The position numbers and the translations under genes were made by a program. Source: Diploscapter coronatus (taxonomy: Eukaryota > Nematoda > Chromadorea > Rhabditida > Rhabditidae). Taken from it: a stretch of 64,000 bases of DNA. The notes beneath the pieces are model-generated. The model made no database searches and was not told the origin of the DNA. It worked only from the letters and a program-made list of their open reading frames with translations. Every line of letters starts with the position of its first letter. Position 1 is the first letter of the stretch. The stretch covers positions 56,249,249 through 56,313,248 of the forward strand of contig OZ038423.1 in NCBI GenBank assembly GCA_964036155.1. The letters run 5' to 3'. Below are positions 15,213-49,185 of the stretch, piece after piece.

Positions 15213-15320
15213 GCTTACGGCCATACCACGCCATCCCGTCTGATCTGGCAAGTTAAGCAGCGTCGGGCCTGGTTAGTACTTGGATCGGAGACGGCTTGGG
15301 AACCCCAGGTGTCGTAAGCT
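15213..15320 (+). rRNA. 5S rRNA-like copy with an 11-nt internal deletion
   Basis: The copy starts GCTTACGGCCATACCACG and ends GTCGTAAGCTTTT, so the terminal stem (GCTTACG/CGTAAGC) pairs. The 3' two thirds match metazoan 5S, including the box C region (TTAGTACTTGGATCGGAGAC). Compared with the usual 119-nt nematode form, about 11 nt are missing after CACG, removing loop B and part of helix III. Length is 108 nt. The internal promoter (A box, intermediate element, C box) lies downstream of the gap and looks intact, and a T-run follows. Either a pseudogene or a variant dispersed copy; I favour pseudogene. No spliced-leader RNA gene is visible beside it. Confidence 0.8.
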
Positions 15321-26199: not shown

Positions 26200-26449
26200 A
26201 GGGCCCTTAAAAATCCCTTCACTTATTTATTTCTAAATTCCATTCTTTTATCAAAATTATTGATTTTATGACAAGATTTTTTCTCGCAAAATATTCGACA
26301 TCATTATTCTCTTATCAATTCTCATTCGATGTAAAAGCTTGCTTTCTTGCTCCTAATGATTATTGATTTTTTATTCGTTTACGCATGAATGTAGGATTTA
26401 TTTCCTAAATCAGTACAGATTTTTAAGATAAAAATTAGTTAGAGATGTA

Positions 26450-26735: not shown

Positions 26736-29700
26736 ATGAGTGGTGAACTTACATCAACGTTCACAAATACTCTTTCCAAACCCGTAAGTTGAAATTCAAA
26801 TTTAATTTTCTCTGATGAATTTTACAACGGAAAAAAACAATCGGTGCGATAGGGTCTCCCCATGCATGATTCTTGTCTAAAAATTATCGCAAAGCTTCAA
26901 TCCATCATAGATCGTTGAGGAATTTGATGAGGGCGATCCAAAATGTCGTTTCTTTTGCATCTTGAAAATAAATAATTCATTACTAAAATGGAAATGATAA
27001 TTTCAGAAAGGAATTGAAATACCACTGATAGCTGGAACACTATCTACATCAAGTAATGCAGGATCTACAAGTAAAGATTTGATAGTTGATAAAAAAAATT
27101 TAGCTTATTGTCATTTTTAGAAAATGAACAGACAACTTCTAGCAATCCGATTAAGTAAGAATACCGAGTTTCATTATTTACTAATAAATTTCTTCAGGCT
27201 GAAGAATACAGTTTGCATTGGCATCGATCTGGGCACGACTTATTCATGTGTTGCTATCGTTGAAAATGGAAAGCCTAGAATAATTTTCAATGAAGAAGGT
27301 AAATCAATTATAAAATCCCCCTAATTATTCTTTCCATTATAATTTATTCTCAGGCGGAAATTTTACGTCATCGATTGTATCATATGGGGATAATAACGAA
27401 GTATTAGTTGGTAACCATGCACTGAACTATCCTGATCTTTCACAAGTTTTATACGGTTTGTATTCTTTAGTCCGTAATCCGGGAGGCGAGAAGTGGTGCA
27501 CGGCTATTTTTTTGACACCTAGTATTTGACGGAGTGCTTTCTTGTAATTGACGGAGTGCTTTCTTGTAATTGACGGAATGCTTTCTTGTAATTGACGAAG
27601 TGATTTCTATCAAGAAACTCACTGCTTCTATCAAAAATATGAGAGATATTCAATAATTTGACAGAAAATCACTACGTCATTTACAAGAAAGCATTTCGTC
27701 ATTCCTTTCTTTACTAACAAACCTATTTTATGTGTTAAAAAGTGAAATAGCATTCGAAAATGAAAGACTAACTAAAATCATTAGTTCTCTTCTCATTTTT
27801 GACCTCCCGGATTTTGGACTCAATAATATCCAAAGTGCTACCTTATTTTTTGGATTGATTTTCTAGATTCAAAGAGACTTATCGGTTGGGAGTTTATGTA
27901 TGATCTTCCGATCGCCGAGAATCGCTTGCTATGGACATTCGATTTGGATGCAAGAAATGTGTTATATTAATTTTTTATTGTAACGAAATAATAATATTCT
28001 AGGAAGCAGTAGGCTATGTCCTGAATAAAGGCACTGCGGAAGAGCGATTTATTTTGCCGGAAGAAGTGTCAGCTGATATTCTACGAAAACTTAAATTAAT
28101 CACAGAAGTTCGATATTTAAATGATACCTATTTAGCAACTTAGCATTTATCTCTTTAGAGTTACACGGGAAAACCAATAACAGGGGCTGTTGTCGCGATT
28201 CCGGCTTCCTTTCAGACAGCTCAAATAGAGGCTACGAAAAGAGCTGTTCAAATGGCTGGACTCGAGTTAAAGATGCTAGTTAAAGAGCCTACAGCCGCTG
28301 CGATCGCGTACAATGAAGACAAGAAATTAGAAGATTCAAATATAATGATATTTGACTTCGGCGGAGGTAGGTGCATAATCATCATTTGAAAATAACCAAC
28401 TGAGCAAGTGCACCAATGAACTTTCAGGTACACTTGACATCAACATTTGCAAAATAAAAAACGGTAAACTCGCTATAAAAGCAGTTTATGGGGATAAGCA
28501 TTTAGGTAAGGTCATATTTAATATTATTTTCATAGTATGCCTGAGTTTGCATTTTAATAGGTGGCCAGGATTTCGATGGAATAATTATGAGCTATGTATT
28601 ACAAGAATATATGGAATTATCGAATAATGATATTTTTGGAGATAAGCGTTTGGTTAAACGGCTAAGGGCCGAGTGCAGGTCGGCAAAAGAAGCGCTTTCC
28701 TTCAATGTTTCTTCTTATAATATCCATGTTAGCATTATTAAAAATAGTCGAAGTAGCAAATTATGAAATTCAGTTGAATATTGGCCCAGATGACGATTCG
28801 GATTTAAATGTACAATTAACGAGGATAAAGTTTAATGAATTATGCGAGGAGCTTTACACAAGGACATCCAAACTAATTGATGATACGCTTAGAATGGCTA
28901 ATCTTAGGACAGATGACATCGATCACGTAGTAAATAATCACGAAAAATCCTTCCATTCTGATCGAAAATGTCTTCCTCAAATTCTTTATTCAGATATTGG
29001 TCGGTGGGTCAACAAGAATTCCCGCCATAAAGTCTATTTTGGAAATGAAATTTGGACAGGAGAAATTAAAATTCAATATCAACCCCGATGAAGCTGTCGT
29101 ATTTGGGGCAGCTATTTTGGCTGATGCTATTGAAGTAGAAATTATCATACTGCGAATATCTAAACAAAATATTTTAGAGGAAAAAGTCAATTCCATTGAT
29201 TAATTATTTCATTGATGGATTACCCCGGAATATCACTTCACATGAAATCTTATTTTATCGTAAGAAATTATATTGAAAGCTAAGTAGGAGACCTTGAAAC
29301 GATTCGTAATAATTTAGTTTATTATCGAAATAATAATGGTAAATATGAAGGAAGAATAGGCTTGTTCAATTCATATACCTGCTCAGTAGAAGAGGTTGAA
29401 AAATTCCACAACTCGTATTGGCCATATCAAGTAGCAACTACAAAGGATAAAGTAAATTCTTATGTTCGTTATTTTTAATAATTTCTCAAATTTCAGATTT
29501 TTGGAATTCACCACAATTACATTACTGGATTATTTGAAATATATGACTTGAATACTCAACAAATTTCAATAGGTCTTATCAACAAACCCATTAATGATCG
29601 ATTTAAAGAATTTTACAGGCCCAGATCCTCCTGAATGGCGTATTGGTGCATCTATGGCTTATTTCAAAGACAAATTGTATCATTTGGGTGGAAAGGATCC

Positions 29701-31494
29701 TGAAACATGGAAAAATACGAATCGAGTTGATGTAAGAAGATCGAATGAAAGCCCATGAAATTATGAATTCAGGTTTTAATAGATGGGAAATGGCAAGCAG
29801 GACCAGCACTTCCTCTTCCAATTAGTGATATTCAAACAATAACATGCAATGGAATTTTATACGGTCACACTATAAGCATATTCATTATTGTAATTATGGA
29901 TGTTCAGTTATTGATGGAGAAAATAGTAATAAGATATATCGATTATCAGACGATGAACGGGAATGGATTGAAATTGGAGGGATTCCAGAAATACGAGTTT
30001 CATTCGGAGTTGCATCGCTAAATGGAAAAATTTATGTAACTGGAGGAGAGAAGTCGTTAATTTTGTATGATAAATAATGCATAATTATATATTTAGTGGT
30101 ATTAATGCATTAAAATCCTGTTTGTGTTTCGACCCCTCAGCTCCAGTTGGCAGTCGAATTTCTCGAATCGCTGATATGAATTATGCAAGAAAGAATCATT
30201 CACTTGTTGTTGCTAACGAGAAATTGTATGCAGTTGGAGGGTGAGCTGAGATTTTGCACATCTTTATACGAAATATTTGTTAACTTAGAGTTCAAATAAT
30301 TTTCCATACAAATTTTTGTAATTCAATCGAGGAGTACGACCCACAAACGAATAAATGGCGTGAAGTCAAAATTCTATTTTATCGTAAGAAATTATATTGA
30401 AAGCTAAGTAGGAGACCTTGAAACGATTCGTAATAATTTAGTTTTTTATCAAAATAATTATGATGAGGAATATGAAGGAAGGATATGCTTGTTCAATTTA
30501 TATACTTTCTCAGTCGAAGAGATTGCAAAATTCCACAACTCGTATTGGCCACCTGAAGTAGCAACTACACAGAATAAAGTAAATTCTTATGTTCGTTATT
30601 TTGAATAATTTCTTGGGCTTCAGATTTTTGGAATTAACAAATATACATTTGAAATATATGACTCGAATACTCAACAACTTTCAATAGGTCTTATCGACAA
30701 ACCCATGAATGATCGATTTAAAGAATTTTACAGGCCCAGATCCTCCTGAATGGCGTGAATGGGCATCTGTGGCTTATTTCAAAGACAAATTGTATTATTT
30801 GGGTGGATGGGATCCTAAAACAAGGAAAGATACGAATCGAGTTGATGTAAGAAGATCGAATGAAAGTCCATGAAATAATTTATTCAGGTTTTAATAGATG
30901 GAAAATGGCAAACAGGGCCTGCTTTTCCTCTTCTAATTAGTGAAGCTCAAACAATAGAATGCGATACAACTTTATACGGTCACATTATAGCATATTCATT
31001 ATTGTAATTATGGATATTCAGTTATTGATGGTTGTGGATGGGAAAATCCAAAGATATATCGATTATCAGACGATGAACGGGAATGGATTGAAATTGGAGG
31101 GATTCCAGAAATACGACGTTTTTTCGGAGTCGCATCGTTAAATAGAAAGATTTACATAGCTGGAGGAGAGGGGTCGTTAATTTTGTATGATAAGTAATGT
31201 ATCAGTATATATATTTAGTGAGAATACATTAAAATCCTGTTTGTGTTTCGACCCCTCAGCTCCAGTTGGCAGTCGAATTTCTCGAATCGCTGATATGAAT
31301 TATGGAAGATTTTGTCATTCGCTCATTGTCGCTAACGGGAAATTGTATGCAATCGGCGGGTGAGCTGAGATTTTGCATATATTTGCTAACTTAGATTTCG
31401 AAATTTTTCTTTTAGACGTTTTTGTAATTCAACCGAGGAATACGATCCACAAACAAATGAATGGCGTGAAGTCGGAGAAATTGACATAGAATAA
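26736..31494 (+). CDS. Hsp70 nucleotide-binding domain fused to duplicated kelch repeats
   Basis: A 27-exon model sums to 3018 nt (1005 aa) with every junction in phase. The ATG at 26736 lies five bases after an ATTCAG acceptor. Residues about 51-432 form a complete Hsp70 ATPase domain: [10 protein letters not shown] (57-66), the SKRLIG lysine, [10 protein letters not shown] (E225), FDFGGGT (247-253), GGQDFD, SAKEALS and [10 protein letters not shown] (389-398). Where Hsp70s have a peptide-binding domain, this protein has two direct copies (from about residues 460 and 736) of a unit with four kelch-type blades, e.g. [28 protein letters not shown] and [11 protein letters not shown] polyadenylation signal (AATAAA, 31539) follows the stop, and none is obvious between the parts. 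The joins at 29134/29178 and at the 28-nt intron 29260-29287 are the weak points. Alternatively, adjacent Hsp70-like and kelch genes. Function unknown; an ATPase-gated kelch adaptor is speculation. Confidence 0.7.
27469..27821. mobile_element. MITE-like element inside an intron, with internal 22-bp tandem repeats
   Basis: Terminal inverted repeats of 19 bp bound it: AGTCCGTAATCCGGGAGG.. at 27469 and ..CCTCCCGGATTTTGGACTC ending 27821, two or three mismatches. Just inside, the word TGACGGAGTGCTTTCTTGTAAT is repeated about three times head to tail (27529-27602), and an inverted copy lies near 27683-27708. No coding capacity. It occupies intron 27456-27866; without it the intron would be about 58 nt, the local norm. 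No clear target-site duplication was identified. Confidence 0.7.
29245..31473 (+). repeat. Tandem segmental duplication (unit about 1.12 kb)
   Basis: Copy 1 runs from about 29245 to 30367 and copy 2 from about 30368 to 31473. Introns and exons alike are near-identical over long stretches, for example the segment from TATCGTAAGAAATTATATTG onward. The junction is in frame: copy 1's last kelch exon reads straight into the start of copy 2. Small indels and substitutions separate the copies; copy 1 lacks the TTTTAG acceptor used at 31415 but has an in-frame upstream acceptor at 30288. Confidence 0.85.
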
Positions 31495-32189
31495 AGCTTG
31501 GTTATAGTAATCTCAGATTTCATATAGAAATTGTAGTCAATAAAATGTGAAATAATACTTTAATGCACATGATACAGACAACTCTCGAAGACATCCAGAA
31601 GTGATAAGGGAAAATTACAACTCAAATAAATATTCCTTTTAATCAGGGTTGTACGAACTGAACTGAACTTCGAAGTGTCTGGAAGTTCAGCTCAGTTCAA
31701 GTTCGATTTTGTCGAACTTCAGACAGCCCTGATCCTGTCATTCACTCTCCATTACTTGCGATATATCATTACTAGAAAATTTAATCGTTTTAAATGAGAT
31801 CGAATAAACTCAAGAAAAACAATAAATAATTGATAGCATATCGAAAATTGATCAACTTATGTTAACACACCCCTCGAAAATATCCACTCTGGCCGGTTAT
31901 TCTGGAAAATGGGAATTTTGCATTTCTTTGCCATTTTTAGTTTTTTTCACGCATTACATTCATTTTGAACAGTTTTCTTTATTTCAAAGTTTGACTAGCA
32001 AATTCAGAGCTTAAAATTTCTATTTTTTGGGTTTGAAAATTAATATATTTAGAAAAAATTATAGCCCCTCTTCTGCTAGTCAACGATTAAAAACAACGAA
32101 ATTCAACAAACGAATTTGAATAAAATTTCCAAAAATCAACAAGAAAAAATCACTAAAAGTTGGAACATTTCACGAATTTTCAAAACCAT
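31495..32189. other. Convergent intergenic region, Hsp70-kelch / DDX24
   Basis: Contains the AATAAA at 31539 and a 92-bp inverted-repeat element (31642-31733). Otherwise AT-rich with no gene seen. Confidence 0.5.
31642..31733. mobile_element. Short hAT-like inverted-repeat element
   Basis: It starts ATCAGGGTTGT and ends ACAGCCCTGAT, forming 11-bp terminal inverted repeats with one mismatch; CAGGG ends are typical of hAT-derived MITEs. Inside are several GAACTGAACTT/AAGTTCAGCTC words and an exact AAGTTCGA-TTTTG-TCGAACTT hairpin. An 8-bp target duplication was not found, so family assignment is tentative. Confidence 0.5.
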
Positions 32190-35100
32190 TCATCTCATAA
32201 TAGGTGAATTTATCAAAGACGAACATTCTTCAGAAAAGAAGTTTCCAAAATGTCTGAAAATTATCGAGATTTCTGAATGATTTCCTCCCCGTCGATGATT
32301 GTTCGGATCGCCCTTCCCGATGAGGGCTCGTTTTGCAACTTTTTTCCCGATCGGCCGCTTTTTGACATCTCGAATCTCGGCAATGGCTCGTTCAGTAGGG
32401 CGTTCAGTCTTTTCTAAACAATTATTATTTTGAACATTTTATTTTATCTTCGGGAGCAAAACCTTATCATCTCAATGAGTTTTCCTTTCGAGATTTTCAA
32501 TCTTCCCACTAAATTTCTCAATTTGTTTCAAGAGCGATTTTACCGGTTAAAAAAGTCAAATTTTATATTTTCTTTCAAAAATTCTTTTTTCAAATCCGCC
32601 CTACCTTGATGCTCTTCTCTGTTAGTCGTTTATCTTCCATCTCCTGAGTGTCGTTTTCCCTTTCTCTCGTTCGTGCATCGTCCTCGTCCAAATCTGCCTC
32701 GCGGACGATCTTCTCGAACCAGCTCTCTTTCAGGCGGATCTGAAAATATTCGAAAAATCGATATTTTGAAATTTTTGCTATTGAAGCTTGGAAAAATCGT
32801 TTAGTTTTCAATGATTTCTTAGAACACTAATCGTTTTTATTTCAAAAATTCGAATTTTCCACCCCACCTTCTTCCTCTGATAGTTGACGCGCTCCAACTC
32901 GCTGCACGTCTCGACCCGCTCCCTCAAGGTGTCCATCAGCTCGGGGAAGTCGATTTGGAACAGTCTCAGGTCTTCGGCTGAAATTCCAAATTTGTACTTT
33001 TTTCCAAAATTTGATCTTTTATTTTGTTATTACATCTCGAAAAATATAAAATACTCAAGAAATTCGAATTTTTCAACTTTTAAAATATCGATTTTCAACA
33101 ATCGCACCTCGATTGAGCATCCTGCAGAGTTTTCTGTACAAATCGGCTGATTTTGGGTCGATGAGGAGAATCGATTTTCCGCTGGCCGAGGCCCTTGCCG
33201 TTCTGCCTGATCGGTGGATGTACATCTGGAATTTTGCATGTTTAACCTACATAAAATTATGCTTATTTTCTTTTTCTGTATAAAATCAAGAGATTAAAAC
33301 GTTTCTCTTCGAAACCGACCTCAGCCTTAACCGGCACATTGTAGTGAATCACGTGGTCGACGCCCTTGATGTCCAGACCCCGAGCGGCGACGTCCGTCGC
33401 GATGAGCGTTGAATTCGGGACTTTCGCGAAAGCCTCGATGCTCCGGAGTCGTTGTCGTTGCGCCATATCGGCGTGGAGAAGCAGGGGCTCCATTTTGAGC
33501 AGCGACAGCAGATTGTAGAGTCTGAAAAGAGGTCGTTTTCTTTCTATAAAAGATATTATTTGTAGAAAAGAAAGCATTTTCAAGCATACTAGCCTTCTAG
33601 CCCCCGTCATGGAATTTGCGAAAATCAGCGTCCTTCCCGGATGTCGAGTTAACAGGTAGATGACGGTAGTGTCCTGAAGTTTCCATTTTCAAAGGGAATT
33701 CCAAGTATCAAATTTCTTCAAGAAACCAGTTTTTCTAGAACATTATATTGGTCCAAAAATATAATCTTTTCAGAAGATCATCGTAGTTTACATTTTATAA
33801 AATTCCATTTTTCAACCTCAGAACAATTTCTCCTTCAAAATCATTTTGTTCTAGAGCATCTAGAATTTGACTGTTTTAACCCACAAAATCTCGTACCTTT
33901 TCCAGGAGATTGTCGCAATTGATTCTCGACTCCTGAATGGCGCCTGCCATGCCGAACTCCTTCGTCACATCGATCACCTTCTTCTTGCCCTTTCTCAATC
34001 CAGCAATTTCGACCAAACGTTCTGAAAATTCTATTCTAGACTTGTTTGACATTTATTTTGCATTGTAAAAATTCGTTTTTGCTTAACTTTCATTTTTGTT
34101 CATTTATTCTATTTTCTAACATTTTGCACCCTCAAAATTTCCCACGACTTACGAATTTTCTCCTTCGTAGATAACTTCTTGTTTTCATCCCCCTTTTTCT
34201 TCAGGTTCGGCGTGACGAAAGTCAGTGTAGCCGAGAAGACCATGGTTTGAAGTTGAGATTTATCAGCGTGCAGTTTGATGTACTCCAAAATCTGCGCGAG
34301 CTCTTCGAAGTGATTGTCCTCGACCATTCGGTCCATCTCGTCGATCACCAGGCACTGGAGGGCGGAAAAGTCCTAAAAGAATCGATTTTGTTGTCCTTAT
34401 TATCTTACGGTTTTGAAATGTAAACAAATTAGTTTTTTTTCTTAATTTAAGCGAACTGACCTTTAGATACGACCCCTTCTCAGCAGATTCCATCATCTGC
34501 CACAGCCTTCCAGGAGTGGCGATGAGAATGTCTGGCTCGGTGTCGATCAATCGTTCCTGCTTCTGCACGGCCAGACCACCGATCAGATGGGTTACCTTGA
34601 AATTTATTTTCGAAATATATTCATACCATTTTCTCCAAATTCGAAGATTTTAAAGCTTATTTTAAAACCTCTTTTTCTTTTAAAAATTTGTTTAAACCAA
34701 CCCGAATAGCAGTGTACTTGAGTATGGCCTTGACGTGCTTCATGATCTGGACGGCAAGTTCTCTGAAATTAAATTCGTTTTTCTTTCAAAATAAAATAAT
34801 CCTAAATCAAAAGAATGGATCAAAGATTTAAAAATCGTTTTTAATCGCCGAGCTTATTTTTATGGAGCAAATACCTGGTAGGAGCGACAATCAGCGCCCT
34901 AGGGCCGTGGCTCTTCTTCGGGTCGGTCAGAAGGCGGTGCGCGAGGGGGGCGGCGAAGGCCAGAGTTTTGCCACTTCCCTGAATTTTTTAAAACTTTAAT
35001 TTAGTTTTTCTTTCTTTAATTTTACCGTCTCAGCAGCTCCCAGAATATCGTTGCCCTCGCCGATCGCTTCGGGCAGAACGAGTTTTTGAATCTCGGTCGG

Positions 35101-46400: not shown

Positions 46401-49185
46401 TTGAGTTAAAATAATAAGTAGCTTCTTTGAAGCATATTTAGAAAAATTTCATAAATACACCGAAGACTCGTCTCATTGAAAATGGTTTGAATTTTAGGGA
46501 AAAGTGAATTTCTTGAAACCTATTCTTTTTTTAATTTTAGGGAAAAACCTACATCCCCAAAACCAGTCGAAGTTCCTGTTCAAATCGACTCCCGCGCAGC
46601 ACAGCGTCGAATGGAAATGGCGTCTTCGGCACGTCGCTGGACGACGGTTTTTGCGCCACATGCGGTTCTGAAAGTTTTATTCTTAAAGAATTGATACTTT
46701 AGAAATGTTTCAAGCAAATCTATAAAGCCCTCAGAGAAATGTGATATCAATATGAAGTCCGTAAATTATTAAAAATAGCTGCAAATTATTCATTTTGTTC
46801 ATGTTTCGAGAAAAAAAATCTATAGAATCCTTGATGGGAATGAAATAACAATAAGATATCTTTCTTTAGACCAAGAAAATAAAAGAAGGGTTTTTGCAAA
46901 ATTTTGTTGGATATGCTTCAAAGAATTCATAAATTTAGTAGAAATTGAGCAATTTCAGTATCAATGTCACTTTTCAATATCCTTTTCAACGAAAAACAAA
47001 AGTTCCTAACCTTCAGCCTCGAATACTCGTACCCATCAGGGTTCATCACTGGGAGGATGTAGAATTCGATGTGGTCCATCAGTTTTTGGATAGTAGGATC
47101 CTTTTCGTAGCCAGTTATTAGCTAAACAAATCAAATTTCATTCAAAAATCTAAATCAAATTCTTAAAGAAATTCCTAAAATACTTTTTTTTTTCGAAAAA
47201 ATATCTTTAATCTGAAATTTTCTAAAATTGAAAGAGATACAAATTTACAAAAAGTAGAATACCTCCTTAATGATATTCATAGCCGTTGCTGGAGCGATCC
47301 ACTCTCGCGCGTGAATTCCCGCATCGATCCACATCGACACCTTGCCGCCCATCGGGTTGCGTCGGCCGGTTAGCTGATTTTTATAGGGGTAATATTTTTA
47401 ACGGAAAATAGGAAAAAAACCTTATTTTGACGGTTTAAAAGATCAAAAACTTTAAGTTTCTGTACGTTTCAAAAATTCCTTTTCACTAAAAATATCCATA
47501 TTTTCAATCTCAGGTCTATAAATATAGTTAAAGAAAACGATCGCCAACCTTAATCAGCAGTAGAGTCCTGTTCTCGTGACTCTCCCCGATGTCGATGAGC
47601 GTGACCATATCTGGGTTTTCCCGCTTGAGTCGTTTCAACTCCTTGTGAATGTCGTCCAACGAGTTGTATCGATCGTAGGCGAAGCCCTCTTGTGGGTGGT
47701 GGTACAGGTCTTCAGATCGCTCGTTCACTATCGCTCTGAAATTAGAAGAATACAGTAACCTTGAAATGTCAATTTTTGGAAAATTTCCGAAAACTCTTTA
47801 AACTGGTTCATTTGTTACTCTGAGAAAAGTTAGAGCAATTATGGTTTTTTTCGATTTTAGATAAGTTTCAGGGGATTGTTATAAGGTTTAAAATATCTCC
47901 TCTTCAACGGGTCTTATAAGTGGAGTTCAGATTTTTAAGATGAAAACTTGGATGGAAATTAGGCTGGATAGGTTTATAGATTTCAAATAGCTAGTAGTTT
48001 TATGAAAAGCTCAGTTCTATTAAAGACGTTTCTCTCCCATAGTTAAAAAAGTTAACGTTTTGAGAAATAGAAGAGAAATCCTACTGCTCCAAGTCGTTGA
48101 GTGCGACGATGTAGTTGAGATTCTTCGATTCCAAGTCCTTGACGAAAATTGGTGCATCAGAAGGGGTCACGGTAACATCCACGATTCCACCTAGAAACAC
48201 AATAGTTTGAAGTTTTACCGGGGTTTTCTCGGAATGAACTAAATTTTCAGCGATTGTCAGAAAAAATCAGATTTATCACCACTATTTCATCTCAAAACTG
48301 AAAGTTTTATGAAGAACCCCCAATTTTATCAAACGTTGGAAAGCTCGTAGATTTTTTTAACTTTATAAACATTAAATGGCCCAAAAACGAAACTTAAACA
48401 AAAAACTTGAATTCTACCAATTCTTGTTGGTGGCTGCCAGAAATCCAACTCATAGGGCGATGGGCCGTCGTAGAGCGATTTCAAATAGAGTAAATTCTCC
48501 TCGGTTTCAGGATTGATACGAACTAGCTTGAAACTGAAATTTGTATTATTTTGTATTTTATAATCTACCAATGAATGCCATCAGCTCATTGGTTTTAGAA
48601 TATTTTCCTGACTAATAGGACAATTTTGAAACACATCCAAAGTGTTCTCGAATTTAAAGATCTTGAAAAAGATGGTAAGCTTTAGAATGACGGGATAATA
48701 AATGGAATTTTATTTGGCGATGTTTCTAATATGCCTTGCACAGTTAAAATTTCTCAAAAAATCTCTCAAATGGTTAGTTTTTGTCTTCTTTTCGCCCCCA
48801 GATTTTCGTTGTTTCAATCGACTGTTAGATTACAAGAAAAGCCGTTCTCGAACCCTTTGACAAACAAAAATAAACCAAAATGCAATTCTCCGAAAACCCC
48901 CCGAAAATGACCATTTTCAGCTAAATTCTAGAATCAATAATTCGTAGAAATTTGGACCCTCAAAAATTTAACCTAGCTTTTACTTCATCTTCTAAAAATC
49001 GACTGTTTCTGTAACATTTTACAGTAGTCTCTCACTAGATTGTTGAACTAAATAGAAACCAACTCTCTAAAACTATGGCGTTCCTCTTCTGGAGATGCGT
49101 CGTCGTTGAAGTCGGCGTTAGTCGGATTCAGAAGCGCTACCGTAATCCCCACGATGATCGGAAATGAGATTGACTGCCATACCAT
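43479..49185 (-). CDS. suro-1-like: Secreted M14A metallocarboxypeptidase with mucin-like linker and ShKT domain
   Basis: A zinc carboxypeptidase that trims C-terminal residues; C. elegans SURO-1, with similar make-up, acts in cuticle formation. ATG 49185 gives a signal peptide (SFPIIVGITVALL..NA). An activation propeptide follows (about 48540-48070). The catalytic domain contains Zn ligands HAREW (His/Glu, near 47310), LHSYSQ (His, near 46080) and the catalytic Glu in AYLIELRP (near 45700), plus NPDGYEYSR and LNRNFDWFW. After it comes a Ser/Thr/Pro-rich stretch of over 150 residues (about 45020-44170), likely O-glycosylated, then a six-Cys ShKT module (C-x6-C..C..CTKTC-x3-C) and the stop at 43479. 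Exon 1 of the mRNA appears non-coding: a GTAAGTG donor at 49607 pairs with the acceptor at 49188. The join from the signal-peptide exon to the propeptide exon at 48538 is unresolved in frame. Confidence 0.85.

What the first reader, a model, noticed from the sequence alone, without database searches (positions are those of the whole stretch)
26736..31494. Apparent Hsp70-ATPase / kelch-propeller fusion protein
A canonical-size Hsp70 nucleotide-binding domain with all phosphate and adenosine motifs lacks its substrate-binding domain and instead runs in frame into two kelch units. My 27-exon model sums to exactly 1006 codons including stop, which is unlikely by chance given the many junctions. 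I know of no described Hsp70-kelch protein; if real, an ATP-driven switch would be coupled to a protein-interaction propeller. Weak links are the junction at 29134/29178 and the 28-nt intron.
Basis: partly seen in the sequence, partly recalled or inferred. Interest (0 to 1): 0.88.

Follow-up and report, generated by a model that had tools for sequence, protein, structure and literature searches.

The report
Hsp70 ATPase fused to kelch propellers
A roundworm gene joins the ATP-driven half of a heat-shock chaperone to two ring-shaped protein-binding domains, and it belongs to a large gene family whose likely binding surfaces evolve unusually fast, as recognition proteins often do.

Summary
The fusion is real. 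Window 26736-31494 (+) fits one 27-exon, 990-aa gene: Hsp70 nucleotide-binding domain (NBD), 23-aa linker, two kelch units. The 28-nt intron is really 58 nt. Junction 29134/29178 is right: GT..AG in 20 of 20 same-genome loci aligned, 15 of which read in frame from exon 5 through kelch unit 1. The syntenic copy on contig C1 is intact over the 20 exons compared. Twelve of 17 fetched Diploscapter pachys relatives carry kelch beside an NBD.

The NBD keeps its catalytic residues, but the DnaK R151, R167 and N170 equivalents are lost in 17 of 17 subfamily NBDs and kept in 90 of 90 canonical Hsp70s. Ten kelch codons before strand beta4 have dN/dS 3.3, loops after GG 1.5, the rest 0.5, NBD 0.3; ten further kelch units give 4.1, 1.6 and 0.4.

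Best reading: an ATPase module on a diversified recognition propeller, a branch of a larger family that includes F-box-kelch genes. ATP switching, ligand and an immune or self/non-self role are inferred. No transcript was available.

The parts
26207..26400 (+). Repeated ~194-bp element upstream of the gene; candidate shared 5' regulatory region of the family
   Evidence: 38 other matches at 83-89% identity in the own genome (a capped search), several just upstream of other NBD-kelch or kelch loci (against places)
26736..26783 (+). Exon 1, start codon, [16 protein letters not shown]
   Evidence: GT donor; a relative (MSDEPMETSTNPLSKPV) stands before a linker exon and kelch in L052. Supported by this one relative only
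27007..27154 (+). Exons 2-3 (27007-27070, 27121-27154): N-terminal segment [17 protein letters not shown]..., resembling a linker exon
   Evidence: Matches the inter-NBD linker of P0121 (84% over 67 aa including the NBD start; tblastn 27001-27300)
27198..29134 (+). Exons 4-12: Hsp70 nucleotide-binding domain (27198-27298, 27354-27455, 27867-27958, 28003-28107, 28159-28366, 28428-28505, 28561-28727, 28774-28929, 28994-29134); residues about 53-432
   Evidence: Pfam HSP70 354.5 bits; PDB Hsp70 NBDs E 1.4e-81; introns GT..AG, kept in 20 of 20 aligned loci for the eight introns between these exons
27456..27866 (+). Intron 5 (411 nt) with 22-nt tandem repeats and inverted repeats, MITE-like
   Evidence: D5, I2-I5
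29135..29177 (+). Intron 12, the fusion junction
   Evidence: GT..AG in 20 of 20 aligned loci and in the C1 copy
29178..29259 (+). Exon 13: linker [23 protein letters not shown] and start of kelch unit 1 (ILFY)
   Evidence: Homologous to linkers of P0002, P0003, P0004, P0126, P0144 and others
29260..29317 (+). Intron 13, 58 nt (replaces the reported 28-nt intron)
   Evidence: GT..AG in 20 of 20 aligned loci
29318..30383 (+). Kelch unit 1, exons 14-20 (29318-29451, 29497-29572, 29619-29731, 29773-29863, 29908-30052, 30097-30240, 30289-30383; exon 20 also starts unit 2); residues 456-721
   Evidence: Pfam Kelch_1, Kelch_2, Kelch_6; family alignment
30442..31494 (+). Kelch unit 2, exons 21-27 (30442-30578, 30624-30687, 30734-30846, 30888-30978, 31022-31172, 31219-31359, 31395-31494 with stop); residues 722-990
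   Evidence: Tandem copy about 1.12 kb downstream of unit 1; Pfam kelch; best sequence matches among solved structures are designed SAKe propellers, then KLHL20, KLHL17, KEAP1

Best explanation
It is one protein-coding gene, a member of a dispersed nematode family in which an Hsp70-type ATPase domain is fused through a short conserved linker to one or more kelch units. It has no Hsp70 substrate-binding domain, no DLLLLD linker and none of three known docking, linker and J-domain contact residues, so it is very unlikely to fold proteins as an Hsp70 chaperone. The kelch unit belongs to a much larger family, many members of which start with an F-box. Most likely the propeller recognises a protein ligand through its variable face, and the NBD, with ATP-binding and hydrolysis residues intact, acts as a nucleotide-dependent switch or assembly module where sibling genes have an F-box. 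The gene family works as a diversified recognition repertoire, most plausibly against pathogen or other fast-changing proteins. Shown: gene structure, family, residue losses, excess amino-acid change at predicted binding-face positions. Inferred: ATP switching, ligand binding, immune or self/non-self role.
For: Single gene: 27 exons, 26 of 26 introns GT..AG, 990 aa; junction introns GT..AG in 20 of 20 loci; 15 of 20 loci, window included, stop-free and in frame over exons 5-20; syntenic C1 copy with NBD-linker-kelch-kelch, 0 frameshifts and only the terminal stop over 20 exons, 18 of 19 introns GT..AG at the aligned place; D. pachys relatives. NBD: D8, T11, K70, P143, F146, E171, D194, T199 and D201 equivalents kept in the window; R151, R167 and N170 equivalents lost in 17 of 17 subfamily NBDs, kept in 90 of 90 canonical Hsp70s; R151 equivalent I, K or E in 20 of 20 own-genome loci. 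Roles of these residues: passages of PMC12406271 (R151 docks the substrate domain; N170 contacts linker D393) and PMC13012618 (R167 pairs with the J-domain HPD Asp). Selection: NBD w 0.32, kelch rest 0.54, ten pre-beta4 codons 3.31, post-GG loops 1.49; in ten further kelch units 0.38 (rest), 4.09, 1.64. F-box siblings.
Against: No transcript or protein evidence was available. The structure model of relative P0004 is poor (mean pLDDT 65.3), so propeller geometry and NBD-propeller contacts are unknown. The face positions were fixed after I had seen the variability track; one search uses other loci but the same positions, and none of its ten kelch units had an NBD in the roughly 900 nt read upstream, so it tests the kelch family, not NBD-kelch genes. 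In one search the acceptor of one intron did not sit at the aligned place in 9 of 11 rows (gaps), though all ten translations were open. Equivalence to KEAP1 contact residues is recalled. Nei-Gojobori pairs are not independent, and gene conversion is likely. Kelch unit 1 against unit 2 gives dN/dS 0.88 (0.56-1.45), neither constraint nor positive selection. Five of 20 loci have a stop or frameshift. R167 and N170 losses are not unique: among five other D. pachys NBDs R167 is kept in 3 and N170 in 1; only R151 is kept in 5 of 5. ATPase activity and any immune role are untested.
Confidence: 0.6

Rival explanations
1. Two adjacent genes, an NBD-only Hsp70 and a kelch gene, wrongly joined by gene modelling.
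For: D. pachys models P0129 and P0121 lack kelch; kelch units are far more numerous than NBDs of this type; F-box-kelch and linker-kelch relatives without NBD exist.
Against: 43-nt junction intron with GT..AG in 20 of 20 loci; homologous linker in relatives with different longest contigs; 15 of 20 loci in frame across it; no in-frame Met between the NBD and residue 542; same order and open frame in the C1 copy.
Confidence: 0.04
2. The window copy is a decaying or unexpressed member of a real family.
For: dN/dS 0.88 between its two kelch units and more divergence in exons (111 of 768) than introns (20 of 312); 5 of 20 aligned loci have a stop or frameshift; one relative has a degenerate NBD (P0001 second NBD).
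Against: 27 exons open; exon indels 3, 12, 6, 3 nt against intron indels 1, 2, 13 nt; catalytic residues intact; same two-kelch layout with open frame in the C1 copy.
Confidence: 0.12
3. The NBD serves as a recruiting module: it binds Hsp70 co-factors (exchange factors or other chaperone partners) so that proteins caught by the propeller are delivered to folding or degradation. No ATP-driven change of the propeller is needed.
For: NBD fold retained by sequence; kelch siblings carry F-box-like domains, whose usual role is to link a captured protein to the ubiquitin machinery; NBD under purifying selection.
Against: R167, the J-domain partner, is lost in 17 of 17 NBDs; retention of nearly every catalytic residue argues that ATP chemistry matters.
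Confidence: 0.2
4. Heat-adaptive chaperone, the reading published for the Diploscapter Hsp70 expansion (PMC6872716; section 8 whole, first of two parts of section 11 and passages read).
For: That paper reports a 59-gene Diploscapter Hsp70 cluster with positive selection on its root branch and links it to thermotolerance.
Against: No substrate-binding domain, no DLLLLD linker, no docking residues in this subfamily. Whether its 59 genes include this subfamily could not be checked.
Confidence: 0.06

Closest known systems
Canonical Hsp70/DnaK (PF00012; HSPA1, BiP)
   Same: NBD by sequence, phosphate and adenosine motifs, catalytic Lys, Glu, Asp and Thr equivalents
   Different: No substrate-binding domain, no DLLLLD linker; R151, R167 and N170 equivalents lost; kelch units instead
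Diploscapter Hsp70 expansion (Cluster III, PMC6872716)
   Same: Same genus as the nearest named relatives, Hsp70 family expansion, positive selection reported there
   Different: Its main text does not contain kelch, substrate-binding, propeller or truncat; identity of the gene sets not tested
F-box-kelch and BTB-kelch (KLHL) adaptors
   Same: Kelch unit as presumed protein-binding part; F-box-kelch genes with closely related kelch units occur in this genome
   Different: Hsp70 NBD instead of F-box or BTB/BACK
Expanded F-box and MATH adaptors of Caenorhabditis (PMC5392922, passages)
   Same: Very large nematode families whose substrate-binding domains are described there as under strong positive selection, with a proposed defence role
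   Different: Other binding domains named there (DUF38, MATH); no ATPase
Fungal HNWD NOD-like receptors, het-d/het-e/het-r (PMC12222747, passages)
   Same: ATPase domain followed by beta-propeller repeats; hypervariable sites under diversifying selection on the predicted interaction surface; assembly of two propellers suggested
   Different: NACHT ATPase and WD40 repeats, N-terminal HET effector; unrelated domains, another kingdom

Membership tests
Hsp70 chaperone | NBD with ATP-binding and catalytic residues | tested here: met
   Pfam 354.5 bits; key residues present in the window NBD
Hsp70 chaperone | C-terminal substrate-binding domain | tested here: not met
   Profile matched only 2-375 of 599; kelch follows
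Hsp70 chaperone | Hydrophobic DLLLLD-type interdomain linker | tested here: not met
   Alignment after NPDEAV, window and D. pachys relatives
Hsp70 chaperone | R151, R167, N170 (DnaK) docking, J-domain and linker contacts | tested here: not met
   0 of 17 subfamily NBDs against 90 of 90 canonical
Hsp70 chaperone | ATP-dependent protein folding | not testable with these tools
   needs protein
Kelch-repeat protein | Repeated kelch motifs above Pfam cut-off | tested here: met
   Kelch_1 151.6 bits, 4 stretches
Kelch-repeat protein | Closed propeller of 5-7 blades | tested here: inconclusive
   About six motif-like repeats per unit by eye; structure model of P0004 too poor
BTB-kelch (KLHL) | BTB and BACK domains | tested here: not met
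   None found in the predicted protein
F-box-kelch | F-box before the kelch unit | tested here: not met
   None in the window gene; F-box-like sequence in 5 of 10 kelch loci L051-L060
NLR/STAND receptor | NACHT, NB-ARC or related STAND ATPase | tested here: not met
   The ATPase is of the Hsp70 family
NLR/STAND receptor | Sensor domain under diversifying selection | tested here: met
   pre-beta4 codons w 3.31, and 4.09 in ten further kelch units, with the limits named under evidence against; works like, not a member
Diploscapter Hsp70 Cluster III | Placement in the published cluster | not tested
   Sequence list of PMC6872716 was not available to me

The most novel reading that the evidence does not exclude
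Diploscapter nematodes have evolved their own counterpart of NOD-like receptors: a repertoire of Hsp70-ATPase/kelch sensors, in which an Hsp70 NBD took the place of the F-box within a hyperexpanded F-box-kelch family. ATP state would control assembly or signalling after the hypervariable propeller face meets a pathogen or non-self protein.
Probability: 0.25. Interest if true: 0.92.

Novelty: new variant of a known kind. Interest (0 to 1): 0.78.

Why it matters
The Diploscapter Hsp70 expansion has been read as heat adaptation (PMC6872716). This subfamily lacks the chaperone half and carries a fast-evolving presumed binding domain, so at least these genes ask for another explanation. If the ATPase does switch, it is an Hsp70 motor wired to a new output domain and a natural experiment in rewiring Hsp70 allostery. 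If the family is defensive, a worm of the same family as C. elegans holds a receptor-like repertoire of a kind that I found no description of (search listings), testable in a laboratory worm.

Tried and rejected
Rejected gene models: a 28-nt or 25-nt intron at 29260 (replaced after homologues); a 25-nt intron at 31194, then 32- and 34-nt introns at 30065 and 31185 (replaced by donors 30053 and 31173); exon start 30154. Kelch-unit statistics were recomputed on the final model; one search's counts. Kelch_1 rose 122 to 145.1 to 151.6 bits over the three models.

Led nowhere: protein search with the C-terminal part of P0004 found only itself. Foldseek of the P0004 model: the 50 rows shown are all Hsp70 family, nothing on the propeller. 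The bacterial promoter scan is not meaningful here; AATAAA is at chance frequency over the window. The main text of PMC5483258 (D. coronatus genome, find only) holds neither Hsp70 nor kelch. Neighbouring ORFs: 5 of 10 without any Pfam match at E 0.01.

Dropped before counts: P0122, P0123 and P0153 were kept apart from the 17 subfamily NBDs; they keep R151 in 5 of 5 NBDs, so its exclusiveness is partly a matter of grouping; R167 is kept in 3 of 5 and N170 in 1 of 5 of them. Two of the proteins giving subfamily NBDs (P0121, P0129) have no kelch in their models. Five of 20 loci (L037, L041, L045, L046, L047) were left out for a stop or frameshift. NBD-end tags with an exact kelch tag 300-700 bp downstream: 3 of 10 on the stretch of C1 compared, lower than for F-box tags (14 of 40).

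Full report
1. The gene. The 12 exons 26736-29134 give a 432-aa stretch with a complete Hsp70 nucleotide-binding domain and GT..AG introns. The apparent frame break at 28728 disappears with a 46-nt intron ending in AATTCAG. The domain ends where the Hsp70 linker and substrate-binding domain should start; the Pfam HSP70 profile stops at position 375 of 599. What follows is a linker exon (29178-29259) and two kelch units of about 1.1 kb in tandem, 78-89% identical exon by exon.

2. Correcting the junctions. Relatives from Diploscapter pachys (P0001-P0004; more) show a linker of the form xxPLINN...HxILFY. The same comparison and the family loci fixed the last kelch exons. The final model has 27 exons, 26 of 26 introns GT..AG, introns of 35-64 nt apart from two of 223 and 411 nt, 990 aa: NBD 1-432 (with an N-terminal extension of about 50 residues), linker 433-455, kelch unit 1 456-721, kelch unit 2 722-990. 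Over the three successive models the Kelch_1 score rose from 122 to 145.1 to 151.6 bits.

3. Relatives by name. Of 17 D. pachys proteins that I fetched (all those among the 120 hits listed in each), 12 match the window's kelch units by BLASTP at E below 1e-3, each with a different longest-contig length. Among the 120 hits listed (of 669), only the four D. pachys ones carry both PF00012 and kelch. These are automatic gene models: P0001 reads part of a kelch unit in what looks like the wrong frame and P0003 is joined to a kinase, so single models should not be trusted. P0001 is 74% identical over 247 residues of the NBD, and pieces of P0121's second NBD are 84-87%, so the window may come from another Diploscapter or strain; the record is unnamed.

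4. The family in the window's own genome. The assembly has 169.7 Mb in three contigs. The window's gene as DNA finds 86 matches in a capped search; 19 loci with near-continuous NBD-linker-kelch alignment were read as L032-L050. Over the 16 introns from exon 4 to the end of kelch unit 1, 14 are GT..AG in 20 of 20 loci including the window; the other two scored 17 and 18 of 20, and the first of these rises to 19 of 20 at the corrected donor. Fifteen of 20 loci are stop-free and in frame over exons 5-20; L037, L041, L045, L046 and L047 are not. Twenty-base tags (up to two mismatches, reversed-pattern control in brackets) count 1032 kelch units (0), 72 NBD ends (2), 62 NBD middles (0) and 466 F-box tags (0) over the whole assembly.

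5. The syntenic copy. Flanks of the gene have a counterpart on contig C1 at 88-89% identity. The stretch between them, C1:60096600-60100600, read in two pieces, holds NBD, linker and two kelch units in the same order. Projecting 20 window exons (28159-31494) onto it gives no frameshift, no stop except the terminal one, and GT..AG at the aligned place in 18 of 19 introns; in the last the acceptor is displaced. The part upstream of NBD exon 8 was not compared. DNA identity is 76% over 28180-31597, lower than in the flanks, and lower in the NBD exons (60-75%) than in most kelch exons (73-88%). So the layout, doubled kelch unit included, seems older than the split of the two copies, and the gene diverges faster than its neighbourhood. 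That C1 and C2 are homologous chromosomes is my inference.

6. What the NBD has kept and lost. Against 90 canonical-like Hsp70s (those of 560-720 aa among the hits listed), 150 positions are at least 95% conserved; the 17 subfamily NBDs keep 65 of them at 90% or more and have lost 37. DnaK equivalents D8, T11, K70, P143, F146, E171, D194, T199 and D201 are kept in the window and nearly all others; R151, R167 and N170 are lost in 17 of 17. Among five other D. pachys NBDs, R151 is kept in 5, R167 in 3, N170 in 1, so R151 is the sharpest mark. In the 20 own-genome loci the R151 site is I in 16, K in 2, E in 2. Passages of PMC12406271 give R151 as the docking contact for the substrate domain and N170 as a contact of linker D393; passages of PMC13012618 give R167 as partner of the J-domain HPD aspartate. 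Mapping to DnaK numbers was by motif and partly recalled. The pattern is that of an ATPase kept while its old output and its old regulator were dropped.

7. How the propeller evolves. Pooled pairwise Nei-Gojobori over the 15 intact loci: NBD dN/dS 0.32 (bootstrap 0.26-0.40), kelch 0.75 (0.61-0.94), kelch without the face positions 0.54 (0.43-0.69), ten codons before strand beta4 3.31 (1.74-6.82), loops after the beta1 GG 1.49 (1.07-2.08); random codon sets reached the face excess in 0 of 2000 draws. I had seen the variability track when I fixed these positions. I therefore repeated the test with the same positions on ten kelch units not used before (L051-L060; 10 of 10 without stop or frameshift, although the acceptor of one intron was out of place in the alignment in 9 of 11 rows): 0.38 (0.29-0.48) for the rest, 4.09 (1.99-16.4) and 1.64 (1.12-2.62) for the two face sets, 0 of 5000 random sets. 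No NBD was found in the roughly 900 nt read upstream of these ten, so this second test concerns the kelch family at large. These are the positions where KEAP1 contacts its ligand, by my recollection; PMC12266349 (passages) lists the KEAP1 residues but the mapping is mine. Within the window gene the two units differ more in exons (111 of 768) than in introns (20 of 312; Fisher p 0.0002), with dN/dS 0.88 (0.56-1.45).

8. Where the kelch unit comes from. Of ten strong kelch loci, five have F-box-like sequence directly before the kelch unit (L051, L053, L054, L057, L059; PF12937 E 1.3e-5 to 3.1e-4 in the four tested, one above Pfam's cut-off), two have a linker exon without NBD (L052, L060), three have another kelch unit upstream (L055, L056, L058). 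Fourteen of 40 exact F-box tags on the compared stretch of C1 have an exact kelch tag 462-490 bp downstream on the same strand; a strand-flipped control gave 0; for NBD-end tags it is 3 of 10. L052 also has a relative of window exon 1. So the window gene looks like an exon 1-linker-kelch gene of a superfamily that includes F-box-kelch genes, into which an Hsp70 NBD was inserted. The order of events is inferred.

9. How it most likely works. PMC5392922 (passages) states that nematode F-box and MATH adaptors are greatly expanded in C. [quoted passage not shown] Fungal HNWD receptors join an ATPase to a propeller whose hypervariable sites are under diversifying selection (PMC12222747, passages). 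The Diploscapter family shows the same evolutionary signature with different parts. I therefore favour a diversified recognition protein, with the Hsp70 NBD as switch or assembly module. The ATP step, the ligand and the purpose are inferred.

10. What is known. PMC6872716 (section 8 whole, first of two parts of section 11, passages) reports a 59-gene Diploscapter Hsp70 cluster with positive selection and heat adaptation as explanation. Its main text has no kelch, substrate-binding, propeller or truncat. I saw no description of an Hsp70-kelch protein in the listings; these are capped and cover open-licence papers only.

Noticed in passing
own genome G000, whole assembly: About 1032 copies of a kelch-unit tag and 466 of an F-box tag: a kelch family far larger than its NBD-kelch branch.
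   Followed up: partly
window 26207-26400: A ~194-bp element upstream of the gene recurs at least 38 more times at 83-89% identity, several copies just upstream of other family genes; possible shared promoter.
   Followed up: partly
window 29260-29317 and 30384-30441: The first intron of the two kelch units is identical (58 of 58) although the other pieces differ by 4-23%; suggests local gene conversion.
   Followed up: no
window 29260-31474: Between the two kelch units exons diverge more than introns (111 of 768 against 20 of 312).
   Followed up: partly
window 28159-31494 against C1:60096600-60100600: The two syntenic copies differ more inside the gene (76% identity) than in the flanks (88-89%), most of all in NBD exons.
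   Followed up: partly
window 27456-27866: Intron 5 holds 22-nt tandem repeats and nested inverted repeats, like a small transposable element.
   Followed up: no
P0001 residues about 350-730: Second NBD of a D. pachys relative has other residues (H, M, N) at several catalytic sites: a possible ATPase-dead member.
   Followed up: no
P0003: D. pachys model joins a protein kinase to kelch, NBD and kelch; may be a merged model or a further fusion.
   Followed up: no
P0121, P0122, P0123: D. pachys proteins with two Hsp70 NBDs in a row, joined by a segment like window exons 2-3.
   Followed up: partly
window 15213-15320 (+): 5S rRNA gene, 74.5 bits.
   Followed up: no
window 33266-34649 (-): DEAD-box helicase exons, with an 88% counterpart on C1.
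   Followed up: no
window 47531-47797 (-): Zinc carboxypeptidase M14 exon.
   Followed up: no
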